A stretch of 19,969 nt of DNA. It comes from CAVPRW01 sp046727435 [NCBI: bacterium]. Its GTDB lineage: Bacteria > Tectomicrobia > Entotheonellia > J063. Below are positions 2,765 to 19,969 of this stretch, in pieces. Within the stretch, counting starts at the first letter, position 1, and each line of letters begins with the position of its first letter. The DNA lies in the NCBI GenBank assembly GCA_046727435.1, contig JBKPCR010000523.1, forward strand, positions 1 to 19,969, written 5' to 3'. The notes below the pieces were generated by a model. That model saw nothing but the letters and a program-made list of their open reading frames with translations, was not told where the DNA came from and searched no databases. Position numbers and translations under genes: made by a program.

Positions 2765-3532
2765 ATGCGGACTAATACGACAAAGGCCAAACTAGCCGAG
2801 GGCAAAGTTGTGTTCGGCGCGATCATCAGCCGTTTTGCGCCAGACCAGGTGGAGCTGTTCGGCGCCATCGGCTACGATTTTGTGATGATCGACTGTGAGC
2901 ATGGTCCGATGAGCTTGGACGAGGTCGAACACATGGTGCGTGCCGCCGAGGTGTTTGGCATCACTCCGATCACGCGCATCCCCAACCATGCGGACTCCAC
3001 CATTTTGCAGTTTCTGGATCGGGGCGTACAGGGCATCATTGTGCCCCATGTCAATACTCAGGAGGCAGCTGAGGGGGTGGCGCGCGCGGCTCGATACCAT
3101 CCCGAGGGCCACCGAGGTATGGGCAGTGGGCGGGCTCATGACTACGGGATTAGCGTGTCACGGGACGAATCGACGCGCTGGATTAACGCCAATGTGCTGG
3201 TCATCCCCATGATCGAAGAGACCGAGGCCGTGGATAACCTGGACGCGATTCTGAAGGTGCCTGGTGTCGACGTGCTCCACGTTGCCGCTAGCGACCTGAG
3301 CCAGAGTATGGGTTTTCCTGGGGCGGCGGCCGTGAGGCAAGTGATGCGGCAGGTGATTCCCAAGATCAGAGCTGGTGGTAAACTGGTCGGGGTAGGCGGC
3401 AATTCCCCAGCCGATGCCGCCGGCGTCGCCGAGTTTATCAAGGTGGGAGCCAATTTTGTGACGATTTCGGCGTTGGGGCTGCTACGCCTTGGGGCCGAAG
3501 ACTTCCGCCAGCGCGTGCAGGCAGCGCTGTGA
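2765..3532 (+). CDS. HpcH/HpaI-family aldolase (class II, pyruvate-type)
   Basis: A 255-residue protein of the HpcH/HpaI aldolase/citrate-lyase superfamily. Family members use a divalent metal to cleave or form 4-hydroxy-2-oxo acids, giving pyruvate plus an aldehyde. Visible motifs are MIDCEHGP with the catalytic His46, the substrate arginine in TRIP (Arg71), GVQGIIVPHV (87-96), the GSGRAHDYG loop (120-128), and metal ligands Glu151 (IPMIEETEA) and Asp177 (ASDLSQSMG). The usual G-P-x-D-L-S segment reads A-A-S-D-L-S, a small departure next to the metal ligand. A CGGAG ribosome binding site sits in the 15-bp gap after the SDR gene, so the two are probably co-transcribed. The operon suggests side-chain processing of a hydroxylated oxo acid. 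The exact substrate (for example a 2-keto-3-deoxy acid or 4-hydroxy-2-oxo acid) is not determinable. Confidence 0.92.
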   Translation: MRTNTTKAKLAEGKVVFGAIISRFAPDQVELFGAIGYDFVMIDCEHGPMSLDEVEHMVRAAEVFGITPITRIPNHADSTILQFLDRGVQGIIVPHVNTQEAAEGVARAARYHPEGHRGMGSGRAHDYGISVSRDESTRWINANVLVIPMIEETEAVDNLDAILKVPGVDVLHVAASDLSQSMGFPGAAAVRQVMRQVIPKIRAGGKLVGVGGNSPADAAGVAEFIKVGANFVTISALGLLRLGAEDFRQRVQAAL

Positions 3533-3644: not shown

Positions 3645-3784
3645 TGAAATTCTGGTACTCAGACCAGGGCATGACCTCGTGATTCGCTGTCACGCATGGC
3701 TTGCTGGCCTACTGAAGTATTATGCTATCGAGGTCGCCTGCATGGTTTGACCTGATGGCCCAGGGTCGCCACAGGAGGATGCTT

Positions 3785-4558
3785 GTGCCCCCTCCGTTCC
3801 CCGGTATGGACCCATATTTGGAACATCCCGCGCTTTGGCCGGGGGTGCATAACGGGCTCATTGCCGCGTTGCAACTCTCCCTGGCCCCCCAACTCCGGCC
3901 GCGGTACTACGTCGCCATTGAAGAGCGGCTGTATATCACCGAGCCGGATCAGAGAGTGTTTGTTGGGCGCCCGGATCTCGCGGTCATCGGTCAGCCAGCA
4001 GCCGAGATCGTGCTGAAGCCGACCCCCTCTGCGTCCTCTGTGTTGACAGTGCAGGTTCCCGTGCCCGATGAAGTGCGGGAGACCTATCTAGAGGTGCGGG
4101 AAACGCGCACAGACTATGTATTGACGGTATTGGAGCTCCTCTCTCCGACCAGCAAGCGTCCAGGGCGTGGTCGACGATTATATGAGGACAAGCGTATGGA
4201 GGTGCTGGCGAGCAGGACCCACCTGGTCGAGATCGACCTCCTTCGGGCGGGGGAGCCCATGCCGATTATGGGCGATGGTAGAGCCAGCGCTTACCGCACG
4301 TTAGTGAGCCGGGGGGACTGTAGGCCCAACGCCACCCTCTATGCCTTTGGAGTCCGCCAGCCTATTCCCCCCTTCTCTCTGCCACTGAAGCCAACCGACC
4401 AGGAGCCCACCATCGACCTTGGTCAGATCCTTCACGACCTCTATGACCGGGCGAGTTACGACTTGCGCCTGGACTATAAGGGCGACCCTGATCCGCCTCT
4501 GCCGCCGGTCGAGGCGGTCTGGGCGGACGAGTTGCTACGTCAGAAAGGCCTGCGCTAG
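3785..4558 (+). CDS. DUF4058 family protein
   Basis: The start is placed at GTG 3785, giving 257 residues beginning MPPPFPGMDPYLEHP. An AGGAGG at 3773-3778 sits six bases before this GTG, whereas it directly abuts the ATG at 3779 and would be too close for it; family members usually begin with an (M)xxPFPGMDPYLE sequence. The opening motif, the WPGVHNGL segment, YYVAIEERLYI, the (V)GRPDLAVI region and YLEVRE...VLELLSPTSK are the hallmarks of DUF4058. The VLELLSPxSK-like stretch with its conserved acidic and lysine residues is reminiscent of restriction-endonuclease-like (PD-(D/E)XK) cores such as Uma2 proteins; that comparison is inference. No signal peptide or membrane segment is seen. The function is unknown. 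It stands alone between a repeat and a terminator. Confidence 0.9.
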   Translation: MPPPFPGMDPYLEHPALWPGVHNGLIAALQLSLAPQLRPRYYVAIEERLYITEPDQRVFVGRPDLAVIGQPAAEIVLKPTPSASSVLTVQVPVPDEVRETYLEVRETRTDYVLTVLELLSPTSKRPGRGRRLYEDKRMEVLASRTHLVEIDLLRAGEPMPIMGDGRASAYRTLVSRGDCRPNATLYAFGVRQPIPPFSLPLKPTDQEPTIDLGQILHDLYDRASYDLRLDYKGDPDPPLPPVEAVWADELLRQKGLR

Positions 4559-4670: not shown

Positions 4671-5717
4671 CTATGCGCCTGGACCGCGCTCCATGGAGTA
4701 TGGTTGCCAGCGCATCAGCTCACTCCTCTCCAAGACCGACGGGTTCACACAGCTCCTGGGCCAACGGCCGCTCAGCACCAGCGCGATTTCTTGCCCTACC
4801 CGTCGCTTCCGCACCGGATCAAAGCGGGCCGAGGCTGAGGCCACGTGCGGCGTCAGGATGACGTTGCCCATCTTCAGCAGGGGATTGGTCAATGACGGAG
4901 GCTCCTGCTCGAGTACATCTAGCCCGGCGCCAGCGATCCAGCCTTCCTGCAGGGCTTTGATGAGCGCCTCTTCGTCCGTCGTGGGGCCGCGTCCAGTGCT
5001 GATGAACAGCGCCTCCGGTCTCATCTGCCGAAAGTGGTGTTCCGTCAGCAGATGATGGGCATCTGGAGTCGCCGGGGCATGCATCGAGACGATGTCGGAG
5101 CGCTGCAGCAGTTCGGTCAGGTCCACCGGCTCCACGCCATATTGACTCACGACCAACTCCTCGACGTAGGGGTCGTAGGCCAGCATGTGCAGGCCGAAAG
5201 CACGCGCACGAATAGCCACGGCTCTGGCCACATGTCCGAACGCGATGAATCCCAACGTTTGGCCCATAAGTCGAGGGAACTGGGACAGCATTGGCCGCCC
5301 CTCGGCCCACCGCCCATTTCTGACCAGCCTATCCATGACGACCAGCCGGCGATAGGTAGCCAAGATCAGCATCATGGTGTGGTCGGCGACTTCCTCGATG
5401 AACGTGTCGGGCACATTGGTGACCGGGATGCCACGCGCCGTGGCCGCTGCGATGTCGACGGAGTCGACGCCCACCGTACCAAGCGCGATGATTTTGCAGC
5501 GCTCGAGGCCATCGATCATACGCTTAGTGATGAGCCGTCCCTTGGCGTACAGGGCGTCGGCGTCACGGGCCGCTCTGGCAAACTCCTCCTCCGTCCCATC
5601 TGGGATCTCGATAATCTCCGCGTCAAGCGAGCCCAGTCCTTCCATTTCCAACTTATAGCCGACGCCCGCCACCGAGAAACTCGCCCCAGCTGGCGTGGCG
5701 ATCTTGAATTTTGCCAT
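4671..5717 (-). CDS. D-isomer-specific 2-hydroxyacid dehydrogenase
   Basis: A 348-residue NAD(P)-dependent dehydrogenase of the D-2-hydroxyacid (formate/glycerate dehydrogenase-like) family, which interconverts 2-oxo acids and 2-hydroxy acids in the cytoplasm. The catalytic set is present: Arg243 in STGRG, Glu272 in EQEPP and His291 in LTPHVA. The substrate-loop motif GTVGVDSVD (80-88) is also seen. The nucleotide-binding turn reads LGFIAFGHVAR (155-165), so the usual GxGxxG is AxGxxA, an uncommon variant. The family includes (S)-sulfolactate dehydrogenase (SlcC), phosphoglycerate and glyoxylate/hydroxypyruvate reductases; the sequence alone does not choose among them. The ATG at 5717 has a strong AGGAGGAG ribosome binding site. 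Its promoter at 5852-5881 matches that of the LDH2-family gene, suggesting joint expression. It is convergent with the DUF4058 gene. Confidence 0.93.
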   Translation of the reverse strand: MAKFKIATPAGASFSVAGVGYKLEMEGLGSLDAEIIEIPDGTEEEFARAARDADALYAKGRLITKRMIDGLERCKIIALGTVGVDSVDIAAATARGIPVTNVPDTFIEEVADHTMMLILATYRRLVVMDRLVRNGRWAEGRPMLSQFPRLMGQTLGFIAFGHVARAVAIRARAFGLHMLAYDPYVEELVVSQYGVEPVDLTELLQRSDIVSMHAPATPDAHHLLTEHHFRQMRPEALFISTGRGPTTDEEALIKALQEGWIAGAGLDVLEQEPPSLTNPLLKMGNVILTPHVASASARFDPVRKRRVGQEIALVLSGRWPRSCVNPSVLERSELMRWQPYSMERGPGA

Positions 5718-7908: not shown

Positions 7909-8496
7909 TCACCCAGGAATCCCCAACTCCTTCTGCAAATCTTTCACCGCCTGATCCCGAGTGCGAGTCTGCCACCGGGCACGCCGACCGATCGGTTCAT
8001 TTTCAATCTCGGGGTCAACTTTTAGGGCCACGAAAACCGGACCAGGTAAATCTAAAATGGCCTTGATGTTGTTGGTAAAATCCTCCAGGGTATCGAAGGC
8101 GAAGGTATGCGGGTATCCGGCTCCACGTGCAATGACATCATATGCAATGTTCTTGGCATTTGGAACGGGCTGGCCACCGGTGGTAGCGTAACATTCGTTG
8201 TCGAGCATAAAATGATAAAAATTTCCGGGCGCCTGCTCAGCGATGGTTGCTAACGCGCCCATCCCCATCAGTACGTCTCCCTCAGAATCAAAGAGAACGA
8301 CCTTTTTATTCGGTTGCGCCAACGCCAGACCCAGACCAAATGACGCATGCCCCCCCATCGCGGGGTCGCCGAGAGGCGCATCGAGAGTAGGACTGGTGCT
8401 GACATTCACCCAATGCCGGCCGCCTCGGCCTGGAATCACAATCGCATCCCCACGATATTGCTGGAAGACTTTGAGCAACTCTGCCGTTTGGATCAT
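7909..8496 (-). CDS. TPP-dependent decarboxylase, beta (TPP-binding) subunit; ComE/phosphonopyruvate-decarboxylase-like
   Basis: A 195-residue protein equal to the carboxy-terminal TPP-binding domain of pyruvate-decarboxylase-type enzymes. LGDPAMGGHASFGLGLALA (42-60) is the family entry segment. The TPP/Mg motif is SEGDVLMGMG (71-80) followed about 25 residues later by DNECYATTGGQP (99-110), a GD...N arrangement in which the usual GDG is GDV. DNxxYxxTGGQ is characteristic of the sulfopyruvate decarboxylase beta subunit (ComE) and phosphonopyruvate decarboxylase group. It would pair with the alpha subunit encoded 31 bp upstream to decarboxylate a 3-substituted 2-oxo acid to an aldehyde. Which oxo acid is not shown by the sequence. 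The last gene of the minus-strand operon. Confidence 0.88.
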   Translation of the reverse strand: MIQTAELLKVFQQYRGDAIVIPGRGGRHWVNVSTSPTLDAPLGDPAMGGHASFGLGLALAQPNKKVVLFDSEGDVLMGMGALATIAEQAPGNFYHFMLDNECYATTGGQPVPNAKNIAYDVIARGAGYPHTFAFDTLEDFTNNIKAILDLPGPVFVALKVDPEIENEPIGRRARWQTRTRDQAVKDLQKELGIPG

Positions 8497-8527
8497 CTCA
8501 GATCTCCATGCGCCGTGTAAATTTGCT

Positions 8528-9046
8528 TTAGCGATTGAAGCCGTGATATTCGTCGCCTACAAGCACGGCGACCGGCCTCTTGGTCTTCTTCGCCTCTTCA
8601 AAAGCCACCGAAATTCGCGCGGCATCCTCATCATTTTCCACTAAATAGTAATTAATACCAAAAGCGTTGATGAAGCGCTCGGTATAGGTGGCAGCGGTGT
8701 CCTGGGTGACACCGTGACGGGTCCAACCCCGATAACCTACCATCAACACGATTGGAATGTTCAGGCCCAGCGCCCAGCCCCGGAGCGAATCTCCTGACTC
8801 CATCAAGCCAGTGTTCTGGATAAGGATGATGGGCGTCTTCCCTCCCACTGAGAGTCCAGCGGCTGTCGCAAAGGCATGCCCTTCACGACTCACCGCCACC
8901 AGATGCAGCGATGGATCGGCCTTCATCAGCAGATACAACCAGTTGGTCTCGCTGTCGGGCAACCAGACGACATGCGTAACGCCGTTTTTCTTCATTTCTC
9001 CCATGACCGTTTCCGGACTGAGATGAGCCTCTTGCGCTTGAGTCAT
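8528..9046 (-). CDS. TPP-dependent decarboxylase, alpha (PYR-domain) subunit; ComD-like
   Basis: A 172-residue protein matching the amino-terminal PYR domain of TPP enzymes encoded as a separate subunit, as in sulfopyruvate decarboxylase ComD. Glu55 in VSREGHAFATAAGL is the conserved glutamate that activates the thiamine ring. LIQNTGLMESGDSLRGW (75-91) corresponds to the QNSGLGN...L motif of the phosphono/sulfopyruvate decarboxylase group. The carboxy end (EEAKKTKRPVAVLVGDEYHGF) is the usual end of this domain. Alpha and beta together rebuild one decarboxylase of about 367 residues. GGAGG lies six bases before the ATG at 9046. Downstream of the LLM gene (139-bp gap) in the same direction, so it may be part of the same transcript. 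Confidence 0.88.
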   Translation of the reverse strand: MTQAQEAHLSPETVMGEMKKNGVTHVVWLPDSETNWLYLLMKADPSLHLVAVSREGHAFATAAGLSVGGKTPIILIQNTGLMESGDSLRGWALGLNIPIVLMVGYRGWTRHGVTQDTAATYTERFINAFGINYYLVENDEDAARISVAFEEAKKTKRPVAVLVGDEYHGFNR

Positions 9047-9185
9047 GCTTGACCTCCGCAGGAAGGTTCTTCAGGGTGACATCCCCGAGGGGAATTTGCG
9101 CTCCACAGATTGACAGTACTCCGCACTGGCTGATACAGGAGCATCGACCCCATGGTACAGGCCTCCTCCTCGTTGCGTCCGGGTC

Positions 9186-14682: not shown

Positions 14683-14983
14683 CGCACTTGTGCCGCTGCA
14701 CCGGGTGCTTGCTCACCATCTGTGGGCATCCGCCTGAGGCCCACTTGTTACGGTGATCTCCTCCATGGAGTGAGACAGATGGGCACGCGGCGACGGGGTG
14801 GCGTAGGCCATTTCAGATCGTTGACACCTCTCACAACCCCCGGTACACTCTCGGCGACGACCATTCAGCATGGCCCACGCGGTGCGCACAGATGCCCCAG
14901 GAGCCAAGACTGGAGTAGAGGCCCTATTGAAGCCGAGGTTTGAGCTGCTGTCGATGATTTTCGGCGCGAGTACGGAGGTGCCC

Positions 14984-15802
14984 ATGGGTGAGGCAAGCAA
15001 TGTGCAGGCGATCACCGACTACTGGGGTCGAGACGGCCTGGGGCAAGCGATCCTCGATGTCCTTGCCGCTTCGGGCAAGAACCTCGAGGCGCTGACCATC
15101 GACGCGCTGGCACCACTGGATCAGTTTCACGGCGGCGGCAAGACGGCGACCGTGCGACTTGCCTGCCTTGCCGGCTTGCATTCTCGGATGCGGGTGCTGG
15201 ACGTCGGCGGCGGCCTAGGCGGGCCGGCGCGGACGCTGGCGGTCGAGTTCGGTTGTCACATCACTGTGGTTGATCTGACGGCGTCCTACGTGCGAGCGGC
15301 GGAGGCCCTCACCGCGCGGCTGCGGCTCGGCGATCGCGTGACACACTATGTCGGCAATGCCTTGGAGCTGCCATTCGATGATGGCACATTCGACGTGGTA
15401 TGGACACAGAACAGTGGGATGAACATCGCTGCCAAGGAGCGACTGTACGTGGGCTTTCAACGTGTGTTGCGCCCCGGAGGATTGTTGGCGCTCCAGGAGC
15501 CCATGGCTGGGCCACTGCAGCCACCTATCTTCCCTGTGATGTGGGCACGCGACGCGACGACCAGCTTCCTGCGTATGCCCATGGAAATGCGTGCGCTGAT
15601 CGAGGCTGCCGGGTTCCAAGCGCGTGCCTGGGAGGATGTGACGCTCGAGATAGCCGGCTCTGGGTCCGACGCTACGGCCCCGATCCACACCATCCAATCC
15701 CTGGTGATGGGAGACGATCTGGCAGCCATCAGCCGCGCTGGCCGCCGCAATCGCGATGAGGGCCGCATCGTGATGGTACAAGCAGTATTCGATCGACCGT
15801 AG
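14984..15802 (+). CDS. Class I SAM-dependent methyltransferase
   Basis: The start is set at ATG 14984, preceded by GGAGG five bases away; an upstream ATG at 14870 has no ribosome binding site. The 272-residue protein has the class I methyltransferase core: motif I VLDVGGGLGGPAR (71-83), the acidic end of strand 2 in VVDLTASY (Asp97), GNALELPFDDGTFDVVWTQNS as motif II/III, and FQRVLRPGGLLALQEP as the later motif. The amino part DYWGRDGLGQAILDVL and the lid GGGKATV-like segment (50-57) resemble the sarcosine/dimethylglycine- and UbiE/tocopherol-type small-molecule methyltransferases. No signal peptide. The substrate is unknown. It is divergent from the VOC gene. Confidence 0.9.
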   Translation: MGEASNVQAITDYWGRDGLGQAILDVLAASGKNLEALTIDALAPLDQFHGGGKTATVRLACLAGLHSRMRVLDVGGGLGGPARTLAVEFGCHITVVDLTASYVRAAEALTARLRLGDRVTHYVGNALELPFDDGTFDVVWTQNSGMNIAAKERLYVGFQRVLRPGGLLALQEPMAGPLQPPIFPVMWARDATTSFLRMPMEMRALIEAAGFQARAWEDVTLEIAGSGSDATAPIHTIQSLVMGDDLAAISRAGRRNRDEGRIVMVQAVFDRP

Positions 15803-15854
15803 GCGGTTATTCGGAATTTCACAGCATTGCAACCTTGCATCACCCCGACAGCGA

Positions 15855-15875
15855 GCGCGCTGCGACGGAGCGCGC
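15855..15875 (+). terminator. GC-rich hairpin after methyltransferase gene
   Basis: GCGCGCT (15855-15861) and AGCGCGC (15869-15875) are exact reverse complements around a 7-base loop, GCGACGG. They lie about 50 bases after the methyltransferase stop. No T-tract follows, so termination is only a possibility. Confidence 0.35.
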
Positions 15876-16065
15876 CTTGGAAAGCTTACCGACAAACTGA
15901 CCGGTGTGGAGCTCATGGGGCCGTTATACTACGTCCAGTTCCCCAAGCGATGCGTCTTGATGCCGGCTTCTTCTCTTGCTCATAGAGCTCTCCAAATGGT
16001 AAGCTGGGGCCTTGACCGCGTGAGGTCGCAGCCCAGCCGATTAGGCAATCGATAGGAGGAATACG

Positions 16066-16173
16066 ATGGGCGAAGTGGTTTTGGAAGGAGTAGACCTCTT
16101 GGTCGACTGCATGGAGCATAGGCTGCGGCCCAGACCGGAATCTCCGCATCGTCCATTGGTAAAGCTGAAATGA
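16066..16173 (+). CDS. Possible small protein or leader peptide (35 aa)
   Basis: An ATG at 16066, preceded by a strong AGGAGG with a six-base spacer, opens a 35-codon frame (MGEVVLEGVDLLVDCMEHRL... ending LVKLK) and stops at 16173. That stop is followed one base later by the ATG at 16175, a spacing that would allow translational coupling to the next gene. The amino half is acidic and mildly hydrophobic, the carboxy half basic and proline-rich. No family is recognised. It could be a real small protein, a leader peptide controlling the next gene, or an untranslated frame with a fortuitous ribosome binding site. Confidence 0.45.
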   Translation: MGEVVLEGVDLLVDCMEHRLRPRPESPHRPLVKLK

Positions 16174-16174
16174 T

Positions 16175-16489
16175 ATGGAGAATTGGCGTATGAATGTGAT
16201 GCGGCTCCCGGACGAGCAATTTCCACATCAAGATCAAGACTTACAGCAGCGATTACCGGTCGAAGAGATCGTCGAGCAAGTGAACGCGATTCTGCGGGCC
16301 CATGGACTCGAGGCTCAACTCACCAGCTTTAGCGTCATGCATCGGCGCTTCGCCAACTGTACCTGCGCAGAATCTTCGGCGGTGGTGAGTTTACAGGGGT
16401 TTGGACGCGCCATGTCGCGCGTCGAGGTCGAGTGCTACGACCCCTGTGTGAAGCTCGGTTGCGCCTCGCAAGAACCATTACATCGGTGA
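16175..16489 (+). CDS. Hypothetical small protein with clustered cysteines
   Basis: A 104-residue unrecognised protein. The ATG at 16175 is one base after the stop of the 35-codon frame. An alternative ATG at 16190 has a GGAG nine bases upstream and would give 99 residues, so the start is uncertain. The first part, with VEEIVEQVNAILRAHGLE, should form a helix. The second part contains ANCTCAESS and VECYDPCVKLGCASQ, that is CxC followed by C-x3-C-x4-C, five cysteines that could bind a metal or an iron-sulfur cluster, or form disulfides. No signal peptide is seen. The following gene starts eight bases after its stop, so they are probably one operon. Function unknown. Confidence 0.7.
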   Translation: MENWRMNVMRLPDEQFPHQDQDLQQRLPVEEIVEQVNAILRAHGLEAQLTSFSVMHRRFANCTCAESSAVVSLQGFGRAMSRVEVECYDPCVKLGCASQEPLHR

Positions 16490-16497
16490 GGTGGGCG

Positions 16498-16848
16498 ATG
16501 GAGGAAACATTCGTCGAGGTGCGCGATCGGATGTTACGCCGTGTGGGAGAGGAGGTCGAGATCCAACTAGCCCAGGCACGTACGTCAATCGAACAAGCTT
16601 TTTATTGCGGTGAGTTGCGCGCCATCGCAGACACGTGGGAGCTGGAGGCGGTGGACGATTTTTCGCTGTTACTGGGCGACCTGGGCCACATTGAGCTCTG
16701 CCGCCCGGACCTCGACAACGACCTGACGTTTGTCGACCCACGCCTACGCATCCCTGATGCGCTGCCCGAGCGCACCGCCTATTATCAGGGCCGGCGCAAG
16801 ATTCTCGACCGCGTGCACCGGGAAATCTCTGCGCGTTTGGCCACCTAG
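16498..16848 (+). CDS. Hypothetical protein (116 aa)
   Basis: The start is set at ATG 16498, preceded by GGTGAGGTGG and eight bases after the previous stop; the open frame extends further upstream but overlaps the preceding gene. The 116-residue product begins MEETFVEVRDRMLRRVGEEVE and looks largely helical and charged, with a central acidic stretch (LEAVDDFSLLLGDLGHIELCRPDLDND) and a basic carboxy end (GRRKILDRVHREISARLAT). No membrane segment, signal or recognised motif is seen. It is the third member of a small unrecognised cluster located between a methyltransferase and a RidA-like gene. Confidence 0.65.
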   Translation: MEETFVEVRDRMLRRVGEEVEIQLAQARTSIEQAFYCGELRAIADTWELEAVDDFSLLLGDLGHIELCRPDLDNDLTFVDPRLRIPDALPERTAYYQGRRKILDRVHREISARLAT

Positions 16849-16928
16849 GGATGGTCAAACCCCAGCCGCGGCGATGCCGATGCCATCGAGCCGTTTTTCT
16901 TCCTTCCGAGAGGAAAGGAGACACCGCT

Positions 16929-16972
16929 CATCTCTCTTCCACCGGGAAAGGGTTGGGGTGAGGGGAGAGGGT
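16929..16972. repeat. REP-like dispersed repeat, copy 2 (inverted relative to copy 1)
   Basis: Read on the minus strand this begins CCTCTCCCCTCACCCCAACC, then CTTTCCCGG and GGAAGAGAG, the same order of C-rich tract followed by a pyrimidine/purine hairpin as at 3598-3644. It lies in the 152-bp gap before the RidA-like gene. The stem is less perfect than in copy 1. Confidence 0.5.
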
Positions 16973-17000
16973 ATAGTTCATACGACTCAGGAGAGGCTCC

Positions 17001-17399
17001 ATGCAGAAAGAGGCTTTTTGCGCTCCAACGGTGTACAACCCCGTGCGGTATGTCCAAGGGATCAAGACGACTGGTGGCACGATCGTGTGGATCTCTGGGC
17101 AAGTGTCGCAGGACCAAGATGGGAAGGTGGTGCACAAAGGGGATTTCGCCGGGCAAGCGCGCCGGGCCCTGGCTAATCTCCAGGCCATGGTCGAGGCTGC
17201 TGGAGGGACCATCCAGGATATCGTCAAGGTCAACACCTATCTGACCGACCTGCGCTATCGCGAGGAGCTAGCCCGCATCCGCGTCGAATTCTTCCCAGAC
17301 GGCAAGCTGCCGGTCTCGACCCTGGTCGGCGTTGCTGGCCTCGCTGATCCCGACATGCTGGTAGAAATCGAAGCGGTCGCGGTGCTGCCGGAGAAATAA
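17001..17399 (+). CDS. RidA/YjgF-family protein lacking the canonical arginine
   Basis: A 132-residue RidA/YER057c/UK114-type protein, which normally forms a cytoplasmic trimer and, in true RidA, hydrolyses reactive imine/enamine intermediates released by PLP enzymes. Visible family segments are VWISGQVSQDQDGKVVHKGDFAGQARRALANL (29-60), DIVKVNTYLTDL (73-84) and the closing LVEIEAVAVL. The arginine of the P-x-R-(S/T) motif, which binds the substrate carboxylate in RidA (Arg105), is replaced: the stretch is LPVSTLVGVAGL (103-114), with Ser106. It therefore belongs to one of the Rid subfamilies not expected to have imine deaminase activity. GGAG lies upstream of the ATG at 17001. Confidence 0.92.
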   Translation: MQKEAFCAPTVYNPVRYVQGIKTTGGTIVWISGQVSQDQDGKVVHKGDFAGQARRALANLQAMVEAAGGTIQDIVKVNTYLTDLRYREELARIRVEFFPDGKLPVSTLVGVAGLADPDMLVEIEAVAVLPEK

Positions 17400-17511
17400 C
17401 TGGGTAGAACGTGGGGATTGGATCATCTTGCTGCTGACCGGTGCAGACGCTGTGCAATGGGTACACACGCAAAGACGGAAGTGAGCTGAGGAGACGGGAA
17501 GGAGCAGAGCG

Positions 17512-17871
17512 ATGTACTTGTTTCGGATTTTGATCGCCTGGTTGCTTTCGGCAGCAGCGTTCCTAGGGGTATCGAAACTCCTACCAGGCTTTCGTATCGG
17601 GAGTTTTGGTACCGCCCTCGTGGTCGCAGCGGTTTACAGCATCTTGTATATCGTGCTGCATTTCATCCTGTTCAAAATCTTCTGGATCCTGACTATTCCC
17701 TTGGTCATCCTGACGCTCGGGATCATCTTCTTCGTAGTCAACGCAGTGATCCTGTGGTTGACAAACAAACTCATCGAGGACTTCGATATCGATAGCACGG
17801 CAACCTTGCTCATAGCCGCGGTATTGTTGACGGTTGCCAATTGGATCATCCGCGTCGTGCTATTTATTTGA
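17512..17871 (+). CDS. Phage holin family (Phage_holin_4_2/YvlD-like) membrane protein
   Basis: A 119-residue, very hydrophobic protein with four predicted membrane segments: about residues 4-25, 32-54, 58-82 and 94-118. The polar loop TNKLIEDFDIDS lies between the third and fourth. The GF-x-I-G turn after the first helix (LLPGFRIGSFGTAL) and NAVILWLTNKL are typical of the phage-holin-4_2 family (YvlD-like). Despite the name these are common chromosomal membrane proteins of unknown role, and no phage genes are nearby. AAGGAG lies seven bases before the ATG at 17512. Transcription is convergent with the glutamate-synthase-type gene, whose stop is 35 bp away. Confidence 0.9.
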   Translation: MYLFRILIAWLLSAAAFLGVSKLLPGFRIGSFGTALVVAAVYSILYIVLHFILFKIFWILTIPLVILTLGIIFFVVNAVILWLTNKLIEDFDIDSTATLLIAAVLLTVANWIIRVVLFI

Positions 17872-17906: not shown

Positions 17907-19969
17907 CTAATCATCCACGCGGGCGCGCTCGATGATCGTGGTCACCTTGGCGAATTCGTGCCGCACGTAGAATTCCCAATTGGCCAGGATGCGTGTGGCG
18001 ATCTCACTACCGGTCAAGCGCTGGTGGTTTTCGATAAGGCGGCGCAGATGTGGCTCGTCCTCGGTCGAAAGCCGCTCGACCTTGACGGATTCAGTGTTTA
18101 GGCGTCCGTCTCGATACGCTTTGAAGCCATTGAACAGATACAGCACCCCACTGCGGAAGCCTCCAGCACAGTTCCAGCCGATGTCCTCCACATCCTCAGC
18201 CAGGATGACGACGGTGCCACGCGTCATGTATTCGCAAGCATCATCCCCGACCCCCTCGACCACCGCCGTGGCGCCACTATTGCGTACCATGAATCGCAAG
18301 GCGGCCTTACCGCGAACATACATCTCACCACCGGTGGCGCCATAGCCAGACGACATCCCCACGACTGCAGCTTTGTTCGCCGGGCAGGCCAGATCAGCGG
18401 GCGGGCGGACAACAATCAACCCACCGTCCGCCATCGAGTCGCCCACCGCATCGTTGGCAAACCCATTCAGGAAAATCTGCATGCCGCCGTGGATGCCAAA
18501 GCCGAGTCCATTGCCGGCATGCCCCTTGAGGTGGATCTTGATCGGGAAGCGCTGGCCTTCGCGCTCTTTGCGTAGGGCCAACTCGCCCGACAGGGTAGCA
18601 CCGAAGGCACGATCGGTGTTGCAAATCTCGTAAGACACCTCCACCGGTCGTGGGTTGTGGGGGTCGAGGGCTCGAGCAGCATCCTGCAGCAGACGTTGGT
18701 TCAGTGAGTTGATGGGAAAATAACGATAGGTCAGTTCGCCCACGGGCAGTGGCGTGTGCAACAGATCGTCGAAGTGAATCCGCCCCATCGAGTTCGGGAG
18801 GTCCTGGCGCTCGTGCAGCAAGTCTGTACGCCCGATGATCTCACGGACGCTACGATAGCCCATGGCAGCCAGATGCTCACGGATCTCGCGGGCAAAGAAT
18901 AACAAGAACTTCAGCCCATAGATCGGCTTCCCCTGATACTTTGCAATCAGGTCCTTGCGCTGTGTGGCGACGCCGACCGTACACCCCCCGAGATGGCAGA
19001 CACGCTGCTGTACGCAGCCGATGGTCTCCATGAAAATCGTCCCCAGCCCGACGGCATTGGCGCCGAGGATGAACATCTTGACGGCATGCAGACCCGTCTG
19101 GATGCCGCCATCGGCCACCAGCTTCGCCTGCTCGCGCAGGCCACTCCCGGCCAGCACCATATGGGACAGTTGCACCCCATACTCCACAGGTAGGCCGCCG
19201 TACTTGATGGTGTCGAGCGGTGAGGCCCCGGTGCCGCCGCTGTGGCCGGCCATCCAGACGATATCCGCCCCGGCCTTGACGATGCCCGCCGCCACCATGG
19301 CCGCTCCAGAGACCGAGACGATTTTCACCCCGATACGAGCGGCAGGATTGAGCTGACGTAGTTTGTAGATGACGGCGTTGAGATCCTCGATGCTGTAGAT
19401 ATCCTCATTGTTAAAAGGGGATTGCAGCTCCGTTCCGACGTCGACATGGCGCACCTCGGCGATGATGGGCACCACCTTGCGACCGGGGAGAAGGCCCCCC
19501 ATCCCGGGCTTTGCCCCCTGGGCAATCTTGATGTTGATCACCCGACACTTGCGCAGGTAACCGGGCGTCACGCCGAAACGCCCGGAGGCAAACTGGTGGC
19601 TCTGCGGATTGGCATTTTCACTATTGGGTAACAGCTTCATACGATAGAGGGGAATTCCCCCTTCGCCGGTCCCAATGGTGCTGCCCACGAGGTTGTATGC
19701 AATGGCCATGTCGCGGTGCGCGGGGTCGCTGATCGAGCCAAACGACATGTCGCCGCCGAGCACCCGCCCCTTGCCATCGAGGTCCATCAGAATCTTCCAT
19801 TCTGGCTCGACCTCGTCCAGGGGGACCGGCGGTCGATCGGAGACAATCTGGAACGTATCGGCGACGGTGATGGGCAGACGATGGCGAATCACCTCCGTCC
19901 AGCCCCGATATTCGTCGTAGCCGGTCATGACCTCCAGGAACCCCTCGATGAACTCGCGTGGCGGAGTGT
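17907..19969 (-). CDS. Glutamate synthase large-subunit-type protein: FMN domain plus GXGXG domain (5' end off right edge)
   Basis: The minus-strand frame is open to the right edge: upstream of an internal ATG at 19928 the codons continue ...PPREFIEGFLEV without a stop, so the gene starts outside the window. The visible 687 codons contain the FMN-binding TIM barrel of glutamate synthase (GGDMSFGSIS, GTGEGG, IAQGAKPGMGGLLPG, IVWMAGHSGGTGASP, VADGGIQTG, GANAVGLGTIF). The cysteines of the [3Fe-4S] cluster follow as GCVQQRVCHLGGC (C-x5-C-x4-C, near 18982-19016). The carboxy-terminal GXGXG helix domain comes next (GHAGNGLGFGIHGGM, NDAVGDSMADGGLIVV, SSGYGATGGEMYVRG). This matches the synthase half of GltB, where 2-oxoglutarate and ammonia give glutamate. 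Whether an amidotransferase domain lies upstream cannot be seen. Some family positions differ (GWNCAGGFRSG for GrNfaAGMtGG), so it may be a glutamate-synthase-related enzyme rather than GltB itself. Confidence 0.92.
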   Translation of the reverse strand, partial: TPPREFIEGFLEVMTGYDEYRGWTEVIRHRLPITVADTFQIVSDRPPVPLDEVEPEWKILMDLDGKGRVLGGDMSFGSISDPAHRDMAIAYNLVGSTIGTGEGGIPLYRMKLLPNSENANPQSHQFASGRFGVTPGYLRKCRVINIKIAQGAKPGMGGLLPGRKVVPIIAEVRHVDVGTELQSPFNNEDIYSIEDLNAVIYKLRQLNPAARIGVKIVSVSGAAMVAAGIVKAGADIVWMAGHSGGTGASPLDTIKYGGLPVEYGVQLSHMVLAGSGLREQAKLVADGGIQTGLHAVKMFILGANAVGLGTIFMETIGCVQQRVCHLGGCTVGVATQRKDLIAKYQGKPIYGLKFLLFFAREIREHLAAMGYRSVREIIGRTDLLHERQDLPNSMGRIHFDDLLHTPLPVGELTYRYFPINSLNQRLLQDAARALDPHNPRPVEVSYEICNTDRAFGATLSGELALRKEREGQRFPIKIHLKGHAGNGLGFGIHGGMQIFLNGFANDAVGDSMADGGLIVVRPPADLACPANKAAVVGMSSGYGATGGEMYVRGKAALRFMVRNSGATAVVEGVGDDACEYMTRGTVVILAEDVEDIGWNCAGGFRSGVLYLFNGFKAYRDGRLNTESVKVERLSTEDEPHLRRLIENHQRLTGSEIATRILANWEFYVRHEFAKVTTIIERARVDD

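What the first reader, a model, noticed from the sequence alone, without database searches (positions are those of the whole stretch)
16066..16848. Cluster of three small unrecognised genes, one cysteine-rich and one of only 35 residues
Seen: a 35-codon frame with a strong AGGAGG, whose stop at 16173 abuts the ATG at 16175; a 104-residue protein with CxC and C-x3-C-x4-C (five cysteines in its second half); and a 116-residue acidic/basic helical protein starting eight bases later. Inference: an operon-like unit of unknown function, possibly a metal- or redox-responsive small-protein system, or a leader peptide controlling the two genes. I recognise no family for any of the three.
Basis: partly seen in the sequence, partly recalled or inferred. 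Interest (0 to 1): 0.6.

Follow-up and report, generated by a model that had tools for sequence, protein, structure and literature searches.

The report
Two orphan small genes, doubtful leader
Two of the three proposed small genes look real but have no relative in what was searched here, one of them unusually rich in cysteine, while the 35-codon frame is probably not a protein gene, so this looks like an ordinary pair of unknown genes rather than a demonstrated new system.

Summary
The coordinates and motifs are as described, but the three frames are not equally credible. The 116-residue frame (P3, 16498-16848) is clearly coding. The 104-residue frame (P2, 16175-16489) is probably coding and richer in cysteine than its neighbours (5 in 104 against 30 in 4,919). 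Its likelier start is 16190: that ATG has a Shine-Dalgarno site and 16175 has none, so the 'stop abuts ATG' arrangement is probably an annotation effect. The 35-codon frame (P1, 16066-16173) has a good AGGAGG, but its codon usage is unlike neighbouring genes, and 79 of 2,000 shuffles of the same stretch give a frame as long with a comparable site. No relative of P2 or P3 was found in Pfam, NCBIfam, PHROGs, PADLOC, PDB, plasmids, phages or viral contigs; bacterial genomes were scanned for P2 only, with exact short peptides. Conservation, the test that matters, could not be made. P2's one weak lead (cytidine-deaminase CAE zinc motif, E about 2) fails membership. Best reading: two co-translated small proteins of unknown family, P2 probably binding a metal through its cysteines. 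The leader-peptide idea is weakly supported at best, but not excluded.

The parts
16054..16059 (+). AGGAGG, Shine-Dalgarno-like, 6 bases before the P1 ATG
   Evidence: duplex -10.2 kcal/mol, and 5.1% of the window's 710 ATGs on both strands reach -10
16066..16173 (+). P1, 35-codon frame, probably not a protein gene
16141..16182 (+). approximate extent of a weak predicted hairpin pairing P1 codons (CUCC) with the GGAG before 16190
   Evidence: present in the minimum-energy folds of the 53-, 66- and 141-base stretches, absent from the 91-base one; also in the 171-base fold; z -1.6 for the chosen 53 bases, not notable otherwise
16177..16180 (+). GGAG, likely Shine-Dalgarno of P2 for the ATG at 16190
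16190..16489 (+). P2, cysteine-rich protein, 99 residues from the preferred start (104 from 16175)
   Evidence: coding signal; Cys excess; no homologue
16498..16848 (+). P3, 116-residue acidic protein, predicted mostly helical, with a GAGG-type Shine-Dalgarno
   Evidence: coding; duplex -11.3; helix 5-46 (confident only in about the first 20 residues); no homologue
16872..16888 (+). terminator-like stem followed by a T-run, 23 bases after P3
   Evidence: 1 found in 15750-17600, 1.5 expected by chance, so weak

Best explanation
The cluster is a two-gene unit, P2 followed by P3, of small proteins of unknown family in an unidentified organism, probably a bacterium; P1 is most likely an untranslated or incidental frame in the 5' leader. 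Shown: P3 and (less firmly) P2 carry the codon usage of this window's genes; they lie on one strand 8 bases apart; P2 has five cysteines against a background of 0.6%. Inferred: the two are translated from one message; P2 is a small soluble protein whose CxC and C-x3-C-x4-C cysteines hold a metal ion (zinc or an iron-sulphur cluster) or a disulphide; P3 is a helical protein that acts with it. Which process they serve is not shown.
For: Coding statistics. Shine-Dalgarno of P3 -11.3 and of P2 at 16190 -6.4 kcal/mol. Cysteine excess P = 0.0005. No strong opposing frame: four antisense frames score below zero (whose codon table held one gene out of frame), and in the corrected profile minus-strand frames nowhere exceed P3's frame within P3. 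P3's model predicts long helices, confident only at the N-terminus.
Against: No homologue, so no proof of purifying selection or of conserved cysteines. P2 scores at the low edge of real genes, and in the 25-codon windows starting at 16291, 16321 and 16351 another frame scores slightly above it. The structure models are poor (mean pLDDT 43.8 and 52.8), so fold and metal site are guesses. No promoter-like site was found on the + strand. The metal role rests on composition alone.
Confidence: 0.35

Rival explanations
1. P1 is a leader or coupling peptide: a ribosome translating P1 up to 16173 opens a hairpin that hides the GGAG of P2, so P2 (and P3) are made only when P1 is translated.
For: AGGAGG before P1; P1's stop lies 16 bases before the ATG at 16190; a hairpin pairing P1 codons with the GGAG is predicted for 53, 66 and 141 bases (11 of 200 shuffles fold as well for 16134-16186) and for 171 bases.
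Against: The hairpin is absent from the 91-base fold, and the 66-, 91-, 141- and 171-base stretches fold no better than many shuffles (31, 79, 128 and 40 of 200); the Shine-Dalgarno of P2 is not less accessible than usual here (11 of 17 other gene starts are less open); the 398-base leader folds no better than shuffles (z 0.77); P1 codon usage is unlike genes; no Rfam match at E up to 1 in 15700-17100.
Confidence: 0.12
2. P2 is a truncated or divergent member of the cytidine-deaminase zinc fold: C64-A-E66 and P90-C91-x4-C96 correspond to the CAE and PCxxC zinc motifs.
For: The only PDB sequence match of P2 at E up to 10 is yeast cytidine deaminase 1r5t, aligned on its CAE motif; P2 scores 3.8 bits against a profile of 8 deaminases, above the other 184 of 185 stop-to-stop frames of at least 60 residues in the window (best of them 3.0; the 3.7 in the list is P2's own frame), though 69 of 5,000 shuffles reach it.
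Against: E-values 1.9 and 1.2 are chance level and the deaminase was picked after the fact from the whole PDB; 69 of 5,000 shuffles of P2, and 42 of 5,000 that keep its cysteines in place, score as high, some up to 10.6 bits; the profile alignment covers only 16 residues; no PCxxC, no N-V/I-E-N motif, and P2 ends 8 residues after C96, so the second half of the fold is missing; no Pfam or NCBIfam hit at E up to 10; fold search of the poor model lists no deaminase; direct BLASTP E 0.63 and 0.13, the second not on the motif.
Confidence: 0.04
3. P2 and P3 are decayed remnants or chance open frames.
For: No homologues; P2 has weak codon bias.
Against: P3 has full-strength coding bias over both halves; both have Shine-Dalgarno sites, P2 at 16190.
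Confidence: 0.12

Closest known systems
Cytidine deaminase (PDB 1r5t and relatives)
   Same: C-x-C-A-E-x-S/T-A at residues 62-69 of P2, as in several bacterial deaminases; a P-C followed by a third cysteine
   Different: PCx4C instead of PCxxC, no N-V/I-E-N, 27 residues from the first to the second zinc cysteine (33 in the 1jtk sequence), C-terminal half missing; similarity statistically at chance level
CutF-type leader protein of the R. capsulatus cutFOG operon (PMC9973294; abstract and section headings seen)
   Same: a small frame with several prolines near its C-terminus upstream of another gene; possible hairpin over the next ribosome-binding site
   Different: P1 has a single cysteine, acidic residues near the N-terminus rather than a hydrophobic signal peptide, no multicopper oxidase follows, and it is probably not translated
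CnrY/NccY anti-sigma factor (NF033790)
   Same: weak match of P3 residues 10-52 (E 0.13)
   Different: 12.8 bits against a cut-off of 35; no sigma factor among the window proteins that I gave to Pfam (not all of the window's frames)
Gene families exclusive to uncultivated taxa (FESNov catalogue, PMC10849945; abstract seen)
   Same: genes without match in curated libraries; 404,085 such families were catalogued
   Different: those span several species under purifying selection; neither that, nor that this organism is uncultivated, was shown here

Membership tests
Cytidine deaminase | zinc and catalytic motif [CH]-A-E (motif names recalled; seen in the aligned deaminases) | tested here: met
   C64-A65-E66 in P2, alignment; a three-residue match, weak by itself
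Cytidine deaminase | second zinc motif P-C-x-x-C | tested here: not met
   P2 has P90-C91-x4-C96; all 8 deaminases aligned have PCxxC
Cytidine deaminase | N-V/I-E-N substrate motif before the CAE | tested here: not met
   P2 has S-V-M-H there
Cytidine deaminase | significant profile match | tested here: not met
   no Pfam or NCBIfam hit; 3.8 bits to a home-made profile, 69 of 5,000 shuffles as good
CutF-like leader | Sec signal peptide | tested here: not met
   by inspection of P1 only: E3, E7, D10, D14 in the first 14 residues; no predictor was run
CutF-like leader | stem-loop shielding the next ribosome-binding site | tested here: inconclusive
CnrY/NccY anti-sigma factor | score above the curated cut-off | tested here: not met
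   12.8 against 35 bits
Lineage-restricted small gene under selection | homologues in several species with purifying selection | not tested
   no homologue obtained; genome contigs was scanned for P2 but not for P1 or P3

The most novel reading that the evidence does not exclude
P1 is translated and is a cis-acting leader whose translation opens the ribosome-binding site of a new metal-binding cysteine protein (P2) and its helical partner (P3), a small metal- or redox-sensing operon without known relatives.
Probability: 0.06. Interest if true: 0.6.

Novelty: new member of a known kind. Interest (0 to 1): 0.17.

Why it matters
If P2 and P3 prove conserved they would be one more pair of gene families without known relatives, with a testable guess (metal binding) for one of them. 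Such families are many: 404,085 were catalogued from uncultivated taxa alone (PMC10849945, abstract), so on present evidence little singles this pair out except the cysteine content of P2. The useful result is the correction: one of the three 'genes' is doubtful and the start of the second should probably move.

Tried and rejected
Homology. Pfam, NCBIfam, PHROGs and PADLOC gave nothing above chance for P1, P2 or P3 (P2 and P3 again 34, 69; P2 fragments 70); the best were TTI1 for P1 (E 0.086, 13.2 bits against 27), CnrY for P3 (E 0.13, 12.8 against 35) and two PHROGs for P2 (E 0.22 and 0.39). PDB by sequence gave one chance-level chain each for P2 (E 1.9) and P3 (E 0.31); P1 was not tried. tblastn against plasmids and phages gave no match or matches at E of 4 or worse for P2 and P3; P1 was run against plasmids only, no match. 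Viral contigs: P2 and P3, whole and as sub-fragments, none confirmed of 11, 15, 39 and 20 candidate stretches. Genome contigs: P2, none of 104 candidate stretches confirmed; the second and last scan, spent on the neighbouring glutamate synthase to place the organism, confirmed none of 16, so P3 was never searched there. These scans need exact 8-residue peptides from a single sequence and miss distant relatives. Two further neighbours in viral contigs also gave nothing.

Neighbourhood. The methyltransferase upstream has relatives on plasmids, the best 47% identical. The one annotated record of three looked at has other genes around it, and P2 and P3 have no match better than E 0.8 in the three stretches. 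Against all 124 loci held at that point the only match up to E 1 was P2 in L063, E 0.14, a locus brought in by a chance pattern; it was not followed.

Structure. Single-sequence AlphaFold2 models were poor; Foldseek searches with them gave no match at E 0.001 or better (20 and 2 matches up to E 10) and are not interpreted.

RNA. No Rfam family at E up to 1 in 15700-17100; leader and downstream stretches fold like shuffles; 1 promoter-like site (on the minus strand) and 1 terminator-like site against 0.6 and 1.5 expected.

Codon tables. The first included one gene in the wrong frame; it was corrected and repeated, and only corrected values are used for P1, P2 and P3. The 17 training frames are my choice: 13 of them were given to Pfam and 12 of those 13 have a family; 4 were not scanned (2000-2749, 2765-3532, 4671-5717, 7909-8496). 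The shuffles keep base composition only. The anti-Shine-Dalgarno sequence used is the common bacterial one, recalled.

Full report
What is there. P1 runs 16066-16173 (35 codons), P2 16175-16489 (104 residues, Cys 62, 64, 87, 91, 96), P3 16498-16848 (116 residues). Upstream on the same strand is a methyltransferase (14870-15802), 263 bases before P1; downstream is a gene of the Ribonuc_L-PSP / Rid family (17001-17399).

Is each one a gene? I built a codon-usage table from 17 other frames of the window that I took as genes (12 of the 13 given to Pfam have a family; 4 were not scanned). P3 scores 0.360 bits per codon, inside the gene range, with none of 2,000 shuffles as high, and its choice among synonymous codons alone is reached by 0 of 5,000 random recodings. 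P2 scores 0.107, none of 2,000 shuffles as high, but only 1.0% of equal-length stretches of the training genes score that low; part of the deficit comes from its cysteine codons, which are rare in the table, and the synonymous-only test gives 0.0064 for the whole, 0.096 for the first half and 0.017 for the second. P1 scores -0.056: 14.8% of shuffles are as high and 0.6% of in-gene windows as low, and its synonymous choice is like random (0.45), though with 33 codons the power is modest. A frame profile shows the signal of P2's frame beginning at about 16171 and passing to the frame of P3. In P2 it is weak in the 25-codon windows from 16291 to 16351, where another frame scores slightly higher, and around P1 the best, weakly positive frames are on the minus strand.

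Starts. The AGGAGG before P1 pairs with the ribosomal anti-Shine-Dalgarno at -10.2 kcal/mol, but 5.1% of all 710 ATGs in the window, both strands, reach -10, and 79 of 2,000 dinucleotide shuffles of 15803-16189 contain a frame of at least 35 codons with a site of -10 or better. Of seven ATGs in the window preceded by AGGAGG at a suitable distance, three are starts of frames I took as genes; the other four, P1 included, open frames of 9 to 43 codons. P2's ATG at 16175 has no such site (-2.9), while the ATG five codons later, at 16190, has GGAG nine bases upstream (-6.4); P3 has -11.3. I therefore place the start of P2 at 16190, which removes the 'stop abuts ATG' relation; P1's stop would lie 16 bases before it.

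Cysteines. The 17 proteins hold 30 cysteines in 4,919 residues; five in 104 has binomial P = 0.0005, and none of 3,170 overlapping windows of those proteins (104 residues or the whole protein if shorter) reaches five. P2 was noticed because of its cysteines, so this P value overstates the surprise.

Relatives. None was found. The organism is unknown: no genome is held for the window and a scan of bacterial and archaeal genomes with the nearby glutamate synthase confirmed no relative by its exact-peptide method, although tblastn on plasmids finds relatives of that protein at about 41% identity, which shows how insensitive the peptide scans are. 'No relative' therefore means none of close kinship in the collections searched.

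Fold. Single-sequence models reached mean pLDDT 52.8 for P3, with a confident helix only in about the first 20 residues, and 43.8 for P2. Fold searches with them returned nothing at E 0.001 or better.

A lead tested and dropped. P2's only PDB sequence match was yeast cytidine deaminase at E 1.9, on the CAE zinc motif. Some bacterial deaminases read CNCAERTA where P2 reads CTCAESSA. Against a profile of eight deaminases P2 scored 3.8 bits, above the other 184 of 185 window frames (best 3.0; a 3.7 in the list is P2's own stop-to-stop frame), but 69 of 5,000 shuffles of P2 and 42 of 5,000 that keep the cysteines in place do as well, and the alignment is 16 residues long. P2 lacks the substrate motif, has PCx4C for PCxxC and ends before the second half of the fold. 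It is not filed there.

Leader peptide. In a 53-base stretch chosen around it, P1 codons pair with the GGAG of P2 (z -1.6, 11 of 200 shuffles as stable). The same hairpin is in the minimum-energy folds of 66, 141 and 171 bases but not of 91 bases, and none of these stretches folds notably better than shuffles (31, 128, 40 and 79 of 200 as stable). The Shine-Dalgarno of P2 is more open than in 11 of 17 other gene starts here, and the whole leader is not specially structured (z 0.77). Translational coupling through P1 is therefore possible but poorly supported.

Verdict. Two probable small genes of unknown family, one with a possible metal- or disulphide-forming cysteine set, and one doubtful short frame. 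Gene families without known relatives are very numerous (404,085 from uncultivated taxa in PMC10849945; abstract read), so the finding is ordinary until homologues show conserved cysteines.

Noticed in passing
17907-19928 (-): 673-residue protein joining the Glu_synthase domain and the GXGXG domain, with no amidotransferase domain among its Pfam hits; resembles a fusion of N-methylglutamate synthase subunits C and B (comparison recalled, not tested). Best plasmid relatives listed are only about 41% identical.
   Followed up: partly
7909-9046 (-): Two adjacent genes that look like the split subunits of a thiamine-diphosphate decarboxylase (sulfopyruvate or phosphonopyruvate type, recalled); only 8528-9046 was scanned, with a TPP_enzyme_N match.
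   Followed up: no
9043-9153 (-): Another 36-codon frame with AGGAGG, mostly in the gap between two genes (start 9153), similar in kind to P1; such frames recur here.
   Followed up: no
16928-16973 (+): Stretch containing GGTTGGGGTGAGGG, reminiscent of REP-like intergenic elements (recalled); a single match in the window with up to 2 mismatches, while 42 of 200 shuffles have at least one.
   Followed up: partly
3722-4558 (+): DUF4058 protein (E 2.3e-89) with the lowest codon score of the 17 frames taken as genes (0.103 bits per codon).
   Followed up: no
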